Source of the DNA: Myxococcales bacterium
GTDB lineage: Bacteria; Myxococcota_A; Polyangia; Haliangiales; Haliangiaceae
Direction: 5' to 3'
Assembly (NCBI GenBank): GCA_016794525.1
Contig: JAEUJY010000157.1
Coordinates: 1-44,877 of the forward strand
DNA: 44,877 nt
The notes below the pieces were generated by a model that made no database searches, was not told the DNA's origin, and worked only from the letters and a program-made list of their open reading frames with translations. The translations under genes and the position numbers were made by a program. Of the stretch, positions 31,660-38,839 are shown in pieces; positions within the stretch are counted from its first letter, which is position 1; every line of letters starts with the position of its first letter.

Positions 31660-32412
31660 ATGGGCCTGTTCTCCCGCATGAAAGACGGCGTCAAGTCCAA
31701 GGCCAACGCCGCCCTCGACAAGGCCATCGATCCCGCCAAGGAGATCGAGATGGCGATCCTCGAGCTCGAGGAGCAGCGCAAGGCGGCGCTGGCCGAGCTG
31801 ATCTCGTACAAGGCCACCGCCAAGCAGATGGAGCAGGAGCAGGCCAAGTTCGAGGAGCGGGCCGCGACCTGGGAGAAGCGCGCGATGGCGGCGGTCAAGG
31901 CCGGCGACGACGAGGCCGCCAAGCAGGCGCTGCGCGAGAAGAAGGCGGCGCAGGTCGAGGCGGCCAAGATCCGCAAGGACCGCGACGAGGCCGCGAGCTA
32001 CGCGATCCAGCTGAACAAGAGCCGCAAGGAGTTCGAGACCAAGCTGCAGATCCTGAAGCTCAAGAAGGGCACGCTCGCGACCCAGCTGGCGTCGGCGCGG
32101 TCGGCGTCGGGCGACGCGTTCGGCCACGACGGCGAGGTCTGGGACAAGTTCGCGCGCGCCGAGAGCAAGATCGAGGACGAGGCGATCGCCACCGAGGTCG
32201 ACGCGGCGATGCGCGGCGAGGCCGAGGCCGAGGCGGCGCTGGCGTCGTCGATCGCCAAGCTGCCGGCCGGCGCCGCGACCGGCGACGACGCGCTGGCCGC
32301 GATCAAGGCCAAGGTGGCGGCCGAGCGCGAGGCCCGCGCCGAGCGGCTGGCCGCCGCGGCCGGCAAGGCGCTGCCCGCCGGGACGCCGCGCAAGCCGGAG
32401 GGCGACGCGTGA
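31660..32412 (+). CDS. pspA: PspA/IM30/Vipp1 family membrane-stress protein
   Basis: 250 residues, mostly one long coiled coil. It starts with the amphipathic MGLFSRMKDGVKSKANAALDKAIDPAKEIEMAILELEEQ, matching the membrane-binding helix and first hairpin of PspA; further helices (KFEERAATWEKRAMAAVKAGDDEAAKQALREKKAA) carry the family's A-x-x-G-x-D-x-x-A pattern. Residues after ~190 are Ala-rich and diverged. PspA proteins form ESCRT-III-like assemblies that stabilise damaged inner membrane. Placed 4 nt behind the sigma54-type regulator and overlapping the next gene by 4 nt (GTGA), it is the likely effector of the system. Confidence 0.92.
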   Translation: MGLFSRMKDGVKSKANAALDKAIDPAKEIEMAILELEEQRKAALAELISYKATAKQMEQEQAKFEERAATWEKRAMAAVKAGDDEAAKQALREKKAAQVEAAKIRKDRDEAASYAIQLNKSRKEFETKLQILKLKKGTLATQLASARSASGDAFGHDGEVWDKFARAESKIEDEAIATEVDAAMRGEAEAEAALASSIAKLPAGAATGDDALAAIKAKVAAEREARAERLAAAAGKALPAGTPRKPEGDA

Positions 32413-32991: not shown

Positions 32992-33585
32992 ATGGCAGAG
33001 GACGAATCCGACCTCCTCACCCGCGCCCGCGGGGGAGACCGCTCTGCCTTCGGGGCGCTCGTGCGCCTCTACCAACGCCGCGTGTACGCCGCCGCCCTCC
33101 ACGTCACCGGGAACCACGCCGACGCCGAAGACGTCGCGCAGGAGACGTTCGTCCGCGCCTACCGCGGCCTGGCCAGCTTCGACGGCCGCGCCGACTTCTT
33201 CACCTGGCTGTACCGCATCGCGATCAACACCGCGCTCAACCGGCTGCGCTCCGGGCGCCGCACCCGGGCCCTGGCCGACGCCGGCGCCGCCGAGGTGGCG
33301 CAGCTGGGCGGCAAGCCCGAGGACCTGGGCACGCCGCGCTACGCGCCGGACGAGCAGGCCGCGCTGACACAAGAAGTAAGGACCACGCTCGAGGCGGTGG
33401 CGGCGCTGTCGCCGACGCTGCGGGTCACCTTGTTGCTCGCGACCGTCGAGGGCCTGTCCCACAAGCAGATCGCCGCCGTGCTCGACGTGCCCGAGGGCAC
33501 CGTGGCGTGGCGGGTCAACGAGGCGCGGCGCCTGCTGCGCGAGCGGCTGGCCGACGGCGCCGCCAAGGTCACACGAAAACCGTAG
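32992..33585 (+). CDS. ECF-subfamily RNA polymerase sigma factor
   Basis: 197 residues, sigma2 and sigma4 only. Sigma2: DLLTRARGGDRSAFGALVRLYQRRVYAAAL, NHADAEDVAQETFVRAYRGLASFDGRADFFTWLYRIAINTALNRLR. Sigma4: LVEGLSHKQIAAVLDVPEGTVAWRVNEARRLLRERL, a normal helix-turn-helix. The linker (ALADAGAAEVAQLGGKPEDLGTPRY) is longer than usual. It is followed after 46 nt by a single-TM protein in the anti-sigma position that lacks the common zinc-binding HxxxCxxC motif. The target promoter is unknown; the gene's own promoter looks like a housekeeping one. Confidence 0.95.
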   Translation: MAEDESDLLTRARGGDRSAFGALVRLYQRRVYAAALHVTGNHADAEDVAQETFVRAYRGLASFDGRADFFTWLYRIAINTALNRLRSGRRTRALADAGAAEVAQLGGKPEDLGTPRYAPDEQAALTQEVRTTLEAVAALSPTLRVTLLLATVEGLSHKQIAAVLDVPEGTVAWRVNEARRLLRERLADGAAKVTRKP

Positions 33586-33631: not shown

Positions 33632-35029
33632 ATGTCCGACGCCTCCTTCACCGACGACGAGCTCGACCAACGCCTGCGCGCGGCCACGTCCGCGCTGGCG
33701 GCGCTGGCGCCGGCCGGGCGCGTCGACGGCCTCGAAGCCAAGGTCCTGGCAGAGCTGGCCGACCTCGACGCCCGCGGTGCGACCGCCGCGTCTCAGGAGT
33801 ACCCGATGACCTCCGACACCGACCCCAAGCCCGGCTCCACCACCGTCACGCCCCCGGCCGCCACGCCGCGCACCGATGACTCGGGCCTGCACGACATCCG
33901 GTCGCTGGCGCAGGACACCAAGAAGCGCATCTCGCGCCGCATCACCAGCCAGCACGACGTCGACGATCGCATGCTGTCGTCGTCGACCGGCAGCCTGCGC
34001 GCGATCGCGCTGCCCGAGCCGGCGATGCTGGTTGCGCTGCCCGAGGCGCCGGCGACGATCGACGACGTCAAGGCGGCGATGGACGCCAACCCGGCGCTGG
34101 CCGCGGCGGCCGCGTCGATCCCGAAGGCGCCGCGCAAGCGCACCGGCCTGTGGATGGGCACCGGCGCCGTGGCGGTGGCCGCGGCGGCGGCGATCGTCGT
34201 CATGGCCGGCGGCGGCGGCAGCAAGAAGAGCGACAGCGCGCAGGTGGCCAGCGCCGGTTCGGCGAAGGCCCTGGCGGCCGCGCCCGCGGAGGCCGAGGCG
34301 GCCAAGCTGGCGGCGGATCCGGGGCCCGGCTCGGCGGCCGCGGCCCCGTCGGTGGCGCCGATGCCGCCGCCCAGCGCGACCGCGCCGGTGACCGGCGCCG
34401 GCGGCATGGCCCAGGCCACCGGCGACGCGGCGGCGACGCCTCCGGCGTCGGCGGACAAGGGCGAGGTCAAGGCGCCACCGCGCGGCGGCGCGCCCGCGCC
34501 GGGCGGCGGCAGCGCGAGCGGCAGCGGGAAGGATCCCAAGCCGGGCGCCGGCTCCGGCTCGGCCAAGGCGGGCGACAAGCCCGCGGGCGGCGCGGCGACC
34601 GGTGGTGGCAAGGCCGGCGGCGGTGCGGCTGGCGGCGGCGGCGCGCCGACCGGCGAGAAGAGCATCGAGGATCTGCTCAACGACGCGTCGGGCGGATCGA
34701 GCAAGCCCAAGGACAGCGGCGGCGGCGGCGGTGCGGCCGAGCCGACCGGGCCGGTCAAGACCGCGCTCGAGCCCAAGGAGATCAAGGCCGGCATGAGCGC
34801 GGTCGCGGGCGCGGCCCAGGCCTGCTACGGCAGCCACGGCGTCGCCGGGCACGTCAAGGTCAAGGCGGTCGTCGCGCCCAGCGGCTCGGTCACCAAGGTC
34901 GACGCGACCGGCGAGTTCGCCGGCACGCCGACCGGCTCGTGCGTGGCGGCGGCGGTCAAGGGCGCGAGCTTCCCGTCGTGGACCGGCGCGCCGATGACGG
35001 TGACGTACTCGTTCACGCTGCAGGAGTAG
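33632..35029 (+). CDS. Single-TM protein with TonB/AgmX-like C-terminal domain, in anti-sigma position
   Basis: 465 residues. The cytoplasmic N-terminus (~1-168) has helices FTDDELDQRLRAATSALAALAPAGRVDGLEAKVLAELADLDA, then SGLHDIRSLA, a version of the SGLIDIRSMA motif in the GltJ-like protein at 11163. TM helix ~171-190 (LWMGTGAVAVAAAAAIVVMA). A long Ala/Pro/Gly/Ser low-complexity periplasmic stretch contains EKSIEDLLNDASGGS, and the last ~85 residues (AQACYGSHGVAGHVKVKAVVAPSGSVTKV, SCVAAAVKGASFPSW) are a paralogue of the GltJ-like C-terminal domain. The N-terminal helices could bind the sigma factor; this is inference from gene order. Start ATG 33632 has no obvious ribosome binding site. Confidence 0.85.
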   Translation: MSDASFTDDELDQRLRAATSALAALAPAGRVDGLEAKVLAELADLDARGATAASQEYPMTSDTDPKPGSTTVTPPAATPRTDDSGLHDIRSLAQDTKKRISRRITSQHDVDDRMLSSSTGSLRAIALPEPAMLVALPEAPATIDDVKAAMDANPALAAAAASIPKAPRKRTGLWMGTGAVAVAAAAAIVVMAGGGGSKKSDSAQVASAGSAKALAAAPAEAEAAKLAADPGPGSAAAAPSVAPMPPPSATAPVTGAGGMAQATGDAAATPPASADKGEVKAPPRGGAPAPGGGSASGSGKDPKPGAGSGSAKAGDKPAGGAATGGGKAGGGAAGGGGAPTGEKSIEDLLNDASGGSSKPKDSGGGGGAAEPTGPVKTALEPKEIKAGMSAVAGAAQACYGSHGVAGHVKVKAVVAPSGSVTKVDATGEFAGTPTGSCVAAAVKGASFPSWTGAPMTVTYSFTLQE

Positions 35030-35090: not shown

Positions 35091-36143
35091 ATGGCCCACG
35101 CACCGCGCGGCAACTTCTTCGAGGACTTCCGGATCGGGCAGCGCTTCCAGCACGCGACGCCCCGCACGCTCCACGGCGGCGACCTCGCGCTGTACATCGC
35201 GCTGACCGGCGATCGCCGGCCGGTGTCGTCGTCGACCGAGTTCGCGCGCTCGCTGGGCTTCGGCCGCGAGGTCGTCCACGACCTGCTCGGCTTCCACGTC
35301 GTCTTCGGCAAGACCGTCGGCGACGTCTCGCACAACGCGGTGGCCAACCTCGGCTACGCGCGGGTGCTGTTCCCGCGGCCGATCTACCCCGGCGACACGC
35401 TGACCGCCGAGACCGAGGTGATCGGCCTGCGCGAGCTGTCCGACGGCAAGCGCGGCATCGTCTACGTGCAGAGCCGCGGCCACAACCAGAAGGGGCAGGA
35501 GGTGCTGTCGTTCGTGCGCTGGGTGATGGTGCAGAAGCGCGACGCCGCGGCGCCGGCGCCGACGCCGGTCGTGCCGAGCCTGCCGCAGGTGCTGGCCGCC
35601 AGCGAGCTGCCGGTGCCCGAGGCGCTCAACCTCGCGCGGTTCCGCGATCTGCGCTGGGCCACCGGCGGCACGCGGCTGTGGGGCGACTACCAGATCGGCG
35701 AGCGCGTCGACGGCGCCGGCGGCATGACCGTCGAGGACGCCGACCACATGCTCGCGACGCGGCTGTACCAGAACACCGCGCGGGTGCACTTCGACGGCCA
35801 CGCCGGCCGCCGCCTGATGTACGGCGGCCACGTCATCAGCGTGGCCCACGCGCTGTGCTACCCGGGGCTCGAGAACGTCGTGCGCATCGCCGCGTGGAAC
35901 AGCGGCAGCCACGTCAACCCGACCTACGGCGGCGACACGCTGTACGCGTGGACCGAGGTCGTCGATCGCGCCGAGCTGCCGGGGCGCACCGATCTGGGCG
36001 CGTTGCGGCTCAAGCTGTGCGCGGTCAAGAACGTCGATCCCACCGTCGAGCCGGTCGCGCTCGAGGTCGAGACCGACGGCAAGCGCGGCTTCGATCCGCG
36101 GGTCGTGCTGGTGCTCGACTACTGGGGCCTGGTCCCGCGGTAG
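35091..36143 (+). CDS. mch: Mesaconyl-CoA hydratase (double hot-dog MaoC family)
   Basis: 350 residues with two MaoC-like hot-dog domains, the length of mesaconyl-CoA hydratases. From memory of the Rhodobacter/Chloroflexus enzymes the run NFFEDFRIGQ, HATPRTLHGGDLALY, SSSTEFARSLG, FHVVFGKTVGDVSHNAVANLGYA, YPGDTLTAETEVIGLR, VRWVMVQKRDAAAPAP and ATRLYQNTARVHFDGHAGRR, YGGHVISVAHAL, SGSHVNPTYGGDTLYAW is near-diagnostic. It hydrates mesaconyl-C1-CoA to methylmalyl-CoA in the ethylmalonyl-CoA (acetate assimilation) or 3-hydroxypropionate pathway. The methylmalonyl-CoA mutase in this window belongs to the same pathway, but crotonyl-CoA carboxylase and methylmalyl-CoA lyase are not here. A related unidentified MaoC hydratase is the alternative. 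It overlaps the convergent minus gene by 25 nt. Confidence 0.82.
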   Translation: MAHAPRGNFFEDFRIGQRFQHATPRTLHGGDLALYIALTGDRRPVSSSTEFARSLGFGREVVHDLLGFHVVFGKTVGDVSHNAVANLGYARVLFPRPIYPGDTLTAETEVIGLRELSDGKRGIVYVQSRGHNQKGQEVLSFVRWVMVQKRDAAAPAPTPVVPSLPQVLAASELPVPEALNLARFRDLRWATGGTRLWGDYQIGERVDGAGGMTVEDADHMLATRLYQNTARVHFDGHAGRRLMYGGHVISVAHALCYPGLENVVRIAAWNSGSHVNPTYGGDTLYAWTEVVDRAELPGRTDLGALRLKLCAVKNVDPTVEPVALEVETDGKRGFDPRVVLVLDYWGLVPR

Positions 36144-36628
36144 GTCGCCAGCGCGCGGCGGCGGGCCAGCGTCAGCGCGATCGCCGTGGCCGCCGCGGCC
36201 AGCGCCAGCGCGGCCACCGCCACCGCCAGCCGGCGCGACGCGCGCTGCCACGCCGGCGCCGGCACGACGACGACCGTGATCTCGGCGTCGGCGCCGATCA
36301 GCGAGCGCGCGCCGGTGGTGGCCGCGGTCCGGATCGGGCTGGGATCGACGGCGCGCGCCACCGCGATCACCGTCGCCCGCGCCGGCCGCGGCGGCGCCGC
36401 CACCAGCGGATCGTCGACCGGCAGCACGACCATGACCCGCACGTCGAGGACGCCGGGCAGGCCGCGCACCAGCGCGGTCAGGCGCGCGTCGGCGCGGGCC
36501 TCCTCGGCGCGGGTGCGCTCGCGCGGCGACGGCGGCAGGCCATCGCCGCACCCGGCGACCGCGGCGATCAGCGCGATCAGCACGATCACCACGCGCCGCG
36601 CGGTGGACAGGGCGCGGCGTCCCGTCAC
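36119..36628 (-). CDS. Mini SctJ/FliF-like lipoprotein (single ring-building motif plus TM)
   Basis: 169 residues from GTG 36628, overlapping the upstream zinc-ribbon gene by 4 nt (GTGA). The N-terminus RRVVIVLIALIAAVAGCGD is a lipoprotein signal (AVAGC). Residues ~45-115 match the second ring-building region of YscJ/FliF proteins: LTALVRGLPGVLDVRVMVVLP, with a Pro-rich loop, then ATVIAVARAV, RSLIGADAEITVVVVPA. A C-terminal TM helix (LAVAVAALALAAAATAIAL) ends in a basic tail, as in SctJ. The first ring-building domain and catalytic-core-sized length (~240) of true SctJ are missing. No other secretion gene is near. Either a minimal, repurposed ring protein or a reduced remnant. Confidence 0.68.
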   Translation of the reverse strand: MTGRRALSTARRVVIVLIALIAAVAGCGDGLPPSPRERTRAEEARADARLTALVRGLPGVLDVRVMVVLPVDDPLVAAPPRPARATVIAVARAVDPSPIRTAATTGARSLIGADAEITVVVVPAPAWQRASRRLAVAVAALALAAAATAIALTLARRRALATYRGTRPQ

Positions 36629-37908
36629 AGCGTCCGCTTGCAGGTGCTGCACCACCACGCGGCGCGCTTGGCGTGCCACAGCGTCGCCACCCGGCAGGTC
36701 GGGCAGTACGGGCTGGGCCGCGGCGCCAGCGGGGCGGGCGCGACGGCGGGGCGGTGGAGCGACGGCGGCGCCGGCGAGAGCGCCGGCGCGTAGGCCGCGA
36801 TCGCCGGCGGCGCGGTCGGCGCGGCGGGCGGCGGGGCGGGGGACGCGAGCGCGGCGCCGCCCAGCGGGGCCAGCACCGGCTTGGGGCCGGCCGGGGCCGC
36901 GCCCCAGCGCGCCGGGGCGGTGGCGTCGTCGGCCGCGGCCGCGCCGGGCAGCGCGCGCAGCGCGGCGATCGCGACGCCGGCCAGCGCGGCGATCGCGCCG
37001 ACGAACAGCCACGCGCCGAGGCCGAGGTGCGTGTCGCGGCTCGGCACGGCGGCCAGCGCGGCGACCGCGGCGGCCAGCGTGGTGCCGGCGGCGGCGAGCG
37101 TGGCGGTCGCCCAGCCGCGCACCGCGACGCCGCTGATCGCGCGCACCACCAGGCCGGCGGCGATGGCCGCGGTCGCCGCCGCGGTGGCCGCGACCAGGCC
37201 CAGCAGGAACAGCGAGCGCAGCGCGGCGGCGCCGTTGCCGAACCGCGCGCAGGTGCCGAGGTCGCAGACCTCGAAGCCCAGCGGCGAGCGCGACCGCTCG
37301 CCGAACTCGACGTCGCCGTGCCACCAGCCGCGCTGCGCCAGCGTCACCCACGCCACCAGCACCAGCACCGCCGCCGCCGCGGCCAGCCCCCAGCGCCGCA
37401 GCGGCGCGCGCGCGTCGCCAGGGCCGATCGGCCACGCCGCGCCGGCGGTCAGCAGCGCGCAGCCGAGGAGCGCCAGCCACAGCCCGGCGCCCAGCGACGG
37501 CGTGCCGTAGCTGGCCGGCAGGCGCTCGATCGCGACCGTGGCCGCCGCCGCCGCCGCGGTCGTCCCCGCCGCGATCGCCACCGCGGCGCGCAGCGGGGGC
37601 CGGCGCTTGCCGCCGGCGAAGGCCAGCGTCACCGCCAGCGCCGCCGCCACCACCGCCAGCGCCAGCGTCGAGCGCGCCGCCCACGCGAACAGATCGTCGC
37701 GCGCGCCGGGGCGGCCGTCGAGCGCGACCTCCTTGCACGTCACCGTCGACGCGCCGACGCACTGCTCGCCGCCGGCCAGCCCGAACGTCGCGCGAGCGCC
37801 GGTGTCGTCGTCGCGATCGATCACGCGCCACCACGGCATCGCCAGGGCCAGCACCAGCACGAACGCGGCCGCGGCGCAAAGCGCGGCGCCGACGGCTCGA
37901 CGGTTCAT
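36625..37908 (-). CDS. Multi-TM membrane protein with C-terminal zinc ribbon
   Basis: 427 residues. About seven to eight hydrophobic helices, starting GAALCAAAAFVLVLALAMPWW; the extracellular loop after TM1 has two Cys (GEQCVGASTVTCKE) and a second loop has FEVCDLGTCARFG, suggesting disulfides and an internal duplication. A ~70-residue Pro/Ala-rich cytoplasmic linker leads to a terminal zinc ribbon CPTCRVATLWHAKRAAWWCSTC (two CxxC pairs). No family is recognised. The minus-strand TACCGT 6 nt before ATG 37908 is its promoter, which overlaps that of the divergent MutH-like gene. The SctJ-like lipoprotein is translationally coupled downstream, so the two probably form one membrane complex. Confidence 0.8.
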   Translation of the reverse strand: MNRRAVGAALCAAAAFVLVLALAMPWWRVIDRDDDTGARATFGLAGGEQCVGASTVTCKEVALDGRPGARDDLFAWAARSTLALAVVAAALAVTLAFAGGKRRPPLRAAVAIAAGTTAAAAAATVAIERLPASYGTPSLGAGLWLALLGCALLTAGAAWPIGPGDARAPLRRWGLAAAAAVLVLVAWVTLAQRGWWHGDVEFGERSRSPLGFEVCDLGTCARFGNGAAALRSLFLLGLVAATAAATAAIAAGLVVRAISGVAVRGWATATLAAAGTTLAAAVAALAAVPSRDTHLGLGAWLFVGAIAALAGVAIAALRALPGAAAADDATAPARWGAAPAGPKPVLAPLGGAALASPAPPPAAPTAPPAIAAYAPALSPAPPSLHRPAVAPAPLAPRPSPYCPTCRVATLWHAKRAAWWCSTCKRTL

Positions 37909-37933: not shown

Positions 37934-38839
37934 GTGAACGCCGCCCGCGCCCTGATCGCCGCGCTGCCGCCGCCGGCGCTGCGCCGGCTGGCCGGCGGTC
38001 GGCGCGACGACGCCGCGCAGGCCGCGGCGCTCGACGCGCGCTTCGCCGGTGATCTGGTGGCGCTGCTCAACTGCCTGCGCGCCGACGAGCTGCGCGGCCT
38101 GCTGGCGGCGCTGCGGCTGGGCCCGCCCGACGGCGACGCCGGCGCGCTGCGGGCGCGGCTGTGGCGGTGGGGCGCCGAGGCCGAGGCCGGCGGCGCGGCG
38201 CTGCTCGGCACCGGGCTGCAGCCGATCCCCGAGCGGCTCGGCGCGCGGCTGGTGCACGTCGCCGCGGCCCGCGGGCTGGCGCCGCCGTCGCCGGGCTGGC
38301 CGCGGCCGGTGCCGCCGCCGCGGCCCGCGCCGATCCCCGGCGACGAGCCGGCCGACGTCGACGAGCTGCTGGCCGCCGCCGATCGCGCGCTCGGCGTGCG
38401 GCTGCCGGCGCGCGGCAGCGACAAGGGCGCGTGGGGCCGCGCCGCCGCGGCGCTGCTGGGCGTCGTCGAGCGGGGCGACGACGAGCCCGACTGGCGCGGC
38501 GAGATCGAGCTGAAGACCGTGCCGATCGCCCGCGATCGCGGCGGTCGCTGGCGGGTCACCGAAGATCCCGCGATCGGCATGGAGGGCGCGTCGCCGCTGG
38601 CCAAGCTGGCCCGGGTGCTGTGGCTGTGTCGGGCCGCCGTCGACGATGGCGCCACGCTGGTGTCGTGGTACTTGCTGGACTGGGACGCCGACGTGGCCCG
38701 CTGGGTCCGCCGCGATCTGCACACCCGCCCCAAGGGCCCCCGCGGCACCGACGCCCGCGGCTGGTACCTGCACAAGCGCTTCTTCGTCGACGCCGGCCTG
38801 TACGCCACCCTCAACGGACCCCCTCGGAGCCACGCGTGA
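37934..38839 (+). CDS. MutH/Sau3AI-family endonuclease with N-terminal SAP-like helical domain
   Basis: 301 residues from GTG 37934. Residues ~38-80 (FAGDLVALLNCLRADELRGLLAALRLGPPDGDAGALRARLW) look like a SAP-type DNA-binding helix-extended-helix. Residues ~145-296 align by eye with E. coli MutH: DKGAWGRAAAALLG against its KGWIGVLLE, DWRGEIELKTVPI against DFAALGVELKTIP, LAKLARVLW against KLKRVLW, and ARGWYLHKRFFVDAGL against PRGFYLKKNFT. The catalytic D-x5-ExK is Asp186, Glu192, Lys194; the MutH Glu in KGxxGxLLE is Ala here. MutH nicks hemimethylated GATC in mismatch repair; Sau3AI cleaves GATC. No Dam-type methylase is next to it. The stop overlaps the methyltransferase start (GTGA). Confidence 0.78.
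   Translation: MNAARALIAALPPPALRRLAGGRRDDAAQAAALDARFAGDLVALLNCLRADELRGLLAALRLGPPDGDAGALRARLWRWGAEAEAGGAALLGTGLQPIPERLGARLVHVAAARGLAPPSPGWPRPVPPPRPAPIPGDEPADVDELLAAADRALGVRLPARGSDKGAWGRAAAALLGVVERGDDEPDWRGEIELKTVPIARDRGGRWRVTEDPAIGMEGASPLAKLARVLWLCRAAVDDGATLVSWYLLDWDADVARWVRRDLHTRPKGPRGTDARGWYLHKRFFVDAGLYATLNGPPRSHA

What the first reader, a model, noticed from the sequence alone, without database searches (positions are those of the whole stretch)
36119..36628. Miniature SctJ/FliF-like ring lipoprotein without a secretion system
LPGVLDVRVMVVLP plus a later ITVVVVPA strand and C-terminal TM match the second ring-building domain of type III secretion/flagellar ring proteins, with a lipobox as in SctJ. 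The protein is ~169 residues, lacks the first ring domain, and is coupled to a zinc-ribbon multi-TM protein. It could be the seed of an unrecognised ring complex.
Basis: partly seen in the sequence, partly recalled or inferred. Interest (0 to 1): 0.6.

Follow-up and report, generated by a model that had tools for sequence, protein, structure and literature searches.

The report
One-ring-domain SctJ of scattered T3SS

Summary
Window 36119-36628 (minus) encodes a 169-aa protein: lipobox Cys27, one ring-building domain (RBM2) and a C-terminal TM helix. AF2, Foldseek/VIA-align and profile-profile comparison all place it on domain 2 of SctJ (PrgK/EscJ). RBM1 is absent and not encoded elsewhere in detectable form. 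"Without a secretion system" is wrong. The genome (Kofleriaceae, Myxococcota) carries, besides a flagellum with its own FliF, a second divergent export set scattered over four other contigs: SctV; FliO-SctR-S-T plus SctU; SctN; SctQ. No other non-flagellar SctJ was found. The short gene occurs in 20 of 23 family genomes with this SctV and in none of six without it, whether or not flagellar genes were found. It lies in the same gene neighbourhood as full-length SctJ in other Polyangia families, so it is the RBM1-less positional ortholog of SctJ. Inner rod (SctI) and needle were not detected in Kofleriaceae. Best reading: the inner ring of a reduced, needleless T3SS related to the Myxococcus T3SS*. 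New variant of a known kind. Caveats: no ring was modelled or shown, and the window's own copy evolves fast and has lost a conserved C-terminal strand.

The parts
36119..36628 (-). RBM1-less SctJ-like lipoprotein (P0001, 169 aa, GTG start, stop 36119-36121)
36548..36628 (-). signal peptide ending in lipobox AVAGC; Cys27 at 36548-36550, invariant in the 12 Kofleriaceae orthologs aligned
   Evidence: sequence; alignment A2
36260..36526 (-). RBM2 domain (residues 35-123; helix 35-55, strands 60-68 and 84-91, helix 97-111, strand 116-123)
   Evidence: AF2; EscJ 98-185 and PrgK 92-190 aligned
36164..36229 (-). C-terminal transmembrane helix (about residues 134-155)
   Evidence: AF2 helix 132-165; sequence
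36625..36628 (-). GTGA overlap: stop of the upstream gene and start of the SctJ-like gene, suggests translational coupling
   Evidence: sequence
36625..37908 (-). multi-TM protein with C-terminal zinc ribbon (427 aa), overlapping upstream partner; found next to the SctJ-like gene in genera g1 and g6, not g5; role unknown
31660..32412 (+). PspA/IM30 gene, part of the conserved neighbourhood (not part of the machine as far as known)
32992..33585 (+). ECF-type sigma factor, part of the conserved neighbourhood
33632..35029 (+). conserved protein without Pfam family, also adjacent to full-length SctJ in other Polyangia families
35091..36143 (+). MaoC-type dehydratase, convergent neighbour overlapping the 3' end by 25 bp; same place in most Kofleriaceae loci read
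37934..38839 (+). conserved protein without Pfam family, neighbour on the other side in the Kofleriaceae loci read

Best explanation
The gene encodes a SctJ that has lost RBM1. It is exported by Sec, lipidated at Cys27 and anchored at both ends in the inner membrane region, leaving one periplasmic RBM2 domain. About two dozen copies probably close into a single ring around the SctRST export gate of a reduced, non-flagellar T3SS whose genes lie scattered over the chromosome (SctV; FliO-SctRST and SctU; SctN; SctQ). With no inner rod or needle detected and no secretin seen beside the export genes, the machine would export substrates only as far as the periplasm, or hand them to another envelope system, as proposed for the needleless T3SS* of Myxococcus. 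In FliF, RBM2 alone forms rings and RBM1 holds it monomeric until RBM3 is present, so losing RBM1 may make the ring self-assembling. Shown here: domain anatomy, absence of RBM1, positional orthology with SctJ, co-occurrence with the non-flagellar export set. Inferred: ring formation, stoichiometry, membership of the same complex, periplasmic hand-over, predatory role.
For: Sequence and fold: TIGR02544 E 3.3e-4 in register; hhalign 99.3% against Polyangia SctJ, 60 shuffles at most 0.5%; AF2 RBM fold, best matches PrgK, MxiJ, EscJ domain 2 and FliF RBM2, VIA Z 10.3 to 8.6. RBM1 missing: the lipobox Cys joins straight to the RBM1-RBM2 linker (LPPSP against LVPTA); an RBM1 profile finds the full-length SctJ of the other families at 3e-13 to 3e-31 and nothing credible in Kofleriaceae. 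Machine present. Sole candidate: only FliF and this gene match SctJ/FliF models in the genome. Co-occurrence: 20 of 23 family genomes with the non-flagellar SctV have it, 0 of 6 without; seven of the 20 lack a detected FliF. Synteny with full-length SctJ of G051, G043, G039, G045, G053. RBM2 alone forms rings, RBM1 inhibits (PMC8786727). Needleless T3SS* (PMC12075869, PMC10433427).
Against: The gene is not in an operon with any export gene. Pfam PF01514 does not match and TIGR02544 scores far below its curated cut-off. The window's copy and that of G006 have lost the VGPFxV strand that other Kofleriaceae orthologs keep, and between these two genomes substitutions are almost even over codon positions (0.40/0.34/0.39), so relaxed constraint in this sub-lineage is not excluded; SctV and SctN of the same pair are clearly constrained. 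Co-occurrence counts are not phylogenetically independent. Three genomes with the SctV lack a detected copy (completeness 86, 86, 59%). SctD, which normally surrounds SctJ, was not searched for. AF2 used two sequences and no oligomer was modelled.
Confidence: 0.8

Rival explanations
1. The gene is a decaying remnant of SctJ. The scattered machine is being lost in this sub-lineage, or works without a SctJ ring, and the short ORF persists because GC-rich sequence rarely acquires stops.
For: Even substitution pattern between G000 and G006 (0.40/0.34/0.39) and loss of the VGPFxV strand in both; three SctV-positive genomes without a detected copy.
Against: Short orthologs in four genera at one place, with invariant C27, P35, L50, P58-G59, D73-P74; G002-G003 show coding constraint (0.33/0.21/0.44); SctT, SctU and SctQ diverge about as fast; SctV and SctN of the same genomes are strongly constrained; RBM fold core above pLDDT 90.
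Confidence: 0.12
2. An independent single-RBM ring lipoprotein, working with the overlapping zinc-ribbon/multi-TM protein and unrelated in function to type III export, as single-RBM sporulation ring proteins do.
For: Not encoded with export genes; GTGA overlap with the zinc-ribbon gene, pairing kept in genera g1 and g6; a SpoIIIAH structure is among the weaker fold matches.
Against: The pairing is absent in genus g5; presence follows the non-flagellar SctV; the neighbourhood is that of full-length SctJ elsewhere; the export set would otherwise have no SctJ.
Confidence: 0.06
3. An accessory ring of the flagellum rather than of the non-flagellar system.
For: The genome has a flagellar export set and FliF on contig C137.
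Against: FliF is complete; seven of the 20 genomes with the short gene have no detected FliF, and G007, G016 and G024 with a flagellar FlhA lack the short gene.
Confidence: 0.02

Closest known systems
SctJ (PrgK/EscJ/MxiJ/YscJ), inner-ring lipoprotein of non-flagellar T3SS
   Same: lipobox, RBM2 with linker in register, C-terminal TM; same gene neighbourhood as full-length SctJ in related families; a non-flagellar export apparatus in the genome
   Different: RBM1 (about 75 aa) missing; 169 aa against 230-332 in the Polyangia SctJ aligned here; not clustered with other T3SS genes; below the curated score cut-offs
Needleless T3SS* of Myxococcus xanthus (MXAN_2434-2464)
   Same: phylum; non-flagellar SctRSTUV, SctN, SctQ; no needle detected; FliO reported in Myxococcota non-flagellar T3SS (PMC12403147)
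   Different: T3SS* is one cluster and reported to contain SctD, SctJ, SctI and SctL (PMC10433427); here genes are scattered, SctI is undetected, and SctJ has one ring domain
FliF, MS-ring protein of the flagellum
   Same: RBM2 fold; FliF RBM2 alone forms rings in vitro (PMC8786727)
   Different: FliF has RBM1-3, two TM helices and no lipobox; the genome has a separate complete FliF on C137
Scattered NF-T3SS of Chlamydiales
   Same: a non-flagellar T3SS spread over several chromosomal loci (PMC3459982)
   Different: Chlamydial systems have a secretin; here neither a needle nor an inner rod was detected

Membership tests
SctJ (TIGR02544 / canonical two-domain SctJ) | signal peptide with lipobox cysteine | tested here: met
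   AVAGC, Cys27 invariant in the 12 aligned orthologs
SctJ (TIGR02544 / canonical two-domain SctJ) | RBM2 domain | tested here: met
SctJ (TIGR02544 / canonical two-domain SctJ) | RBM1 domain between the lipid anchor and RBM2 | tested here: not met
   absent from the protein; RBM1 profile finds nothing credible in the family
SctJ (TIGR02544 / canonical two-domain SctJ) | C-terminal transmembrane helix | tested here: met
   AF2 helix 132-165 and sequence
SctJ (TIGR02544 / canonical two-domain SctJ) | score above the curated cut-off | tested here: not met
   20.4 bits against 161.95; the full-length Polyangia SctJ also miss that cut-off
SctJ (TIGR02544 / canonical two-domain SctJ) | non-flagellar export apparatus in the same genome | tested here: met
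   SctV, R, S, T, U, N, Q found
SctJ (TIGR02544 / canonical two-domain SctJ) | assembles into a ring around the export gate with SctD | not testable with these tools
   no oligomer prediction available; SctD not searched
YscJ_FliF (PF01514) | gathering score | tested here: not met
   no match in hmmscan up to E 10; only FliF found in the genome
Needleless T3SS* (Myxococcus type) | no SctF needle gene | tested here: inconclusive
   PF09392 not found, but no genome of the 56 reaches its cut-off, so the test is weak
Needleless T3SS* (Myxococcus type) | no dedicated secretin | not tested
   none seen beside the export genes read; genome-wide secretins not assigned
Needleless T3SS* (Myxococcus type) | genes in one cluster with SctD, SctJ, SctI, SctL | tested here: not met
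   scattered over five contigs; SctI profile finds nothing credible in Kofleriaceae

The most novel reading that the evidence does not exclude
A minimal type III export machine: one RBM2-only SctJ ring, no inner rod, no needle and probably no secretin, with genes scattered over the chromosome. It would show that a single ring domain is enough to hold the export gate, and that the T3SS core can work as an inner-membrane exporter in its own right, possibly delivering cargo to another envelope machine during predation.
Probability: 0.4. Interest if true: 0.72.

Novelty: new variant of a known kind. Interest (0 to 1): 0.52.

Why it matters
What the two SctJ ring domains each do, and what the needleless myxobacterial T3SS exports and where to, are open questions. 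A natural lineage that dropped RBM1, apparently together with the inner rod, while keeping the export gate and ATPase under strong constraint, gives a ready comparison: it predicts that RBM2 plus lipid anchor and TM is the essential part of SctJ and that RBM1 is tied to the rod/needle or to the outer ring. It also shows that standard SctJ models miss such variants, so secretion-system surveys will under-count scattered systems in Myxococcota.

Tried and rejected
PF01514 and the Pfam scan gave no match to the protein; taken as a sensitivity limit, since profile and fold comparisons agree on SctJ. A single-sequence search of relatives gave many spurious low-complexity matches weaker than about 1e-4; replaced by the family profile. 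Split SctJ (RBM1 encoded elsewhere) was tested with an RBM1 profile and rejected. Needle search was uninformative because it is weak on relatives too. Ka/Ks by counting is unreliable at 98% GC3; codon-position differences against neighbouring and T3SS genes were used instead. Homologs from genome-search loci were not sent to AF2 because its stated rule does not list them; the model rests on two sequences. The genome-contig scan with the MaoC neighbour gave one useful named relative (Kofleriaceae bacterium Gw_SlAct_bin_340, whose contig length equals that of G006); most other hits were unrelated MaoC loci of other phyla. The SctV tree puts the RBM1-less lineages (Kofleriaceae, G031, G042/G050) near each other but does not settle one loss against several: long branches, and full-length G036/G044/G052 at the other end. 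Papers searched: no report of an RBM1-less SctJ was found in the open library, which does not show that none exists.

Full report
CHECK. Window 36119-36628, minus strand, reads as a 169-aa protein from a GTG that overlaps the stop of the upstream gene as GTGA. NCBIfam's SctJ model matches residues 29-96 to positions 91-158 of 193 (E 3.3e-4), which is the second ring domain; Pfam PF01514 does not match. PDB sequence hits up to E 10 are PrgK chains only, in the same register.

FAMILY. Aligned with full-length SctJ of other Polyangia families, the short proteins join the lipobox Cys directly to the RBM1-RBM2 linker; the rest runs in register through RBM2, a VGPFxV strand (kept in most, lost in the window's copy and in G006) and the TM helix. 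Profile-profile probability is 99.3% over residues 28-164; 60 column shuffles reach at most 0.5%.

FOLD. AF2 on two sequences gives mean pLDDT 76.5, core above 90, order helix-strand-strand-helix-strand plus a long C-terminal helix. Foldseek's best matches are PrgK, then a FliF model and MxiJ (1.3e-5 to 2.4e-4). VIA-align puts EscJ 98-185 (Z 10.3, rmsd 2.0, 79 aligned), PrgK 92-190, MxiJ and FliF RBM2 on top. MamB/MamM, ZnT and OsmC domains follow at Z about 8, so fold alone would not settle family; sequence register and gene context do.

RBM1 IS REALLY GONE. A profile of SctJ RBM1 alone finds the full-length SctJ of the other families at 3e-13 to 3e-31, and no credible match in any Kofleriaceae genome (best 0.02), nor in G031, G042 or G050, which also carry short forms. 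SctJ in Kofleriaceae is therefore not split into two genes, as far as detectable.

THE SECRETION SYSTEM. The genome has a flagellar set on contig C137 (FliF, FlhA, FlhB, FliP, FliI, FliM/N) and a second, divergent set: SctV on C126 (615 aa, beside his genes), FliO-SctR-SctS-SctT and SctU on C41, SctN on C105, SctQ on C63. The short gene is on C92. Only FliF and this gene match SctJ/FliF models in the genome.

CO-OCCURRENCE. From: of 23 family genomes with the non-flagellar SctV, 20 have the short gene; the three without are 59-86% complete. Six genomes without that SctV (G007, G008, G012, G014, G016, G024) all lack it; G001 is too fragmented to class. Three of those six have a flagellar FlhA, and seven genomes with the short gene show no FliF, so it follows the non-flagellar system and not the flagellum. 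A hypergeometric count gives about 2e-4 (own arithmetic), but species are not independent.

POSITIONAL ORTHOLOGY. In most Kofleriaceae loci read the short gene lies between a MaoC-type dehydratase and a conserved protein, next to a block of PspA, sigma factor and a protein with no Pfam family. Full-length SctJ of G051 lies next to that same protein, sigma factor and PspA; G043, G039, G045 and G053 keep one of these neighbours within the stretch read. In several of those families SctI sits beside SctJ. An SctI profile finds clear matches in 13 genomes of other families, every one with a full-length SctJ, and none (best 0.0014) in Kofleriaceae. RBM1 and SctI thus tend to be missing together.

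MECHANISM. In FliF, RBM2 alone forms rings, RBM1 does not, and RBM1-RBM2 is monomeric until RBM3 is added (PMC8786727, abstract). An RBM2-only lipoprotein with a TM anchor could therefore form a ring without an assembly check. Without rod and needle the machine would end in the periplasm. The relatives studied in Myxococcus, with no secretin or needle, act in prey lysis together with a Tad-like pilus (PMC12075869, PMC10433427). That Kofleriaceae use theirs likewise is inference.

LIMITS. The window's copy is among the most derived of the family, and its codon-position pattern against G006 is nearly even, while SctV and SctN of the same pair are constrained. Decay in this sub-lineage is possible though less likely. 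SctD and secretins were not assigned. No oligomer was modelled. The SctV tree does not decide between one and several losses of RBM1.

VERDICT. A real, conserved, one-ring-domain variant of SctJ. It does not meet the definition of canonical SctJ (RBM1 missing, below cut-offs) but is its positional ortholog and most likely does its job. It does not found a new kind of ring complex.

Noticed in passing
L182:8838-10304 (G000 contig C105): SctN has a 60-70 aa N-terminal extension resembling the start of the SctL that is a separate gene in G030 (L187:7187-7750); no full SctL was seen beside it, so the stator may be reduced to a coil fused to the ATPase.
   Followed up: partly
L208:2612-8116 (G000 contig C63), also L209, L210, L213: Beside SctQ lie a conserved small protein, a protein of about 1350 aa and FHA/double-zinc-ribbon proteins (the one scanned also matches the YscD cytoplasmic domain, E 7e-10); candidate partners of the scattered T3SS.
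   Followed up: no
L079:2564-4411 (G000 contig C126): Non-flagellar SctV of Kofleriaceae is short (585-631 aa) and skips positions about 398-457 of the FHIPEP model; some other Polyangia show the same gap.
   Followed up: no
L092:8003-8605 (G031), L090:1762-2340 (G042), L091 about 1640-2200 (G050): Short SctJ-like proteins also occur outside Kofleriaceae; the G031 one lacks the lipobox cysteine.
   Followed up: partly
window 36625-37908: Zinc-ribbon/multi-TM protein without Pfam family, overlapping upstream partner of the short SctJ in genera g1 and g6 only.
   Followed up: partly
window 36119-36143: The MaoC gene and the SctJ-like gene overlap tail to tail by 25 bases; similar short tail-to-tail overlaps are seen in relatives (for example L032, L037, L039).
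   Followed up: no
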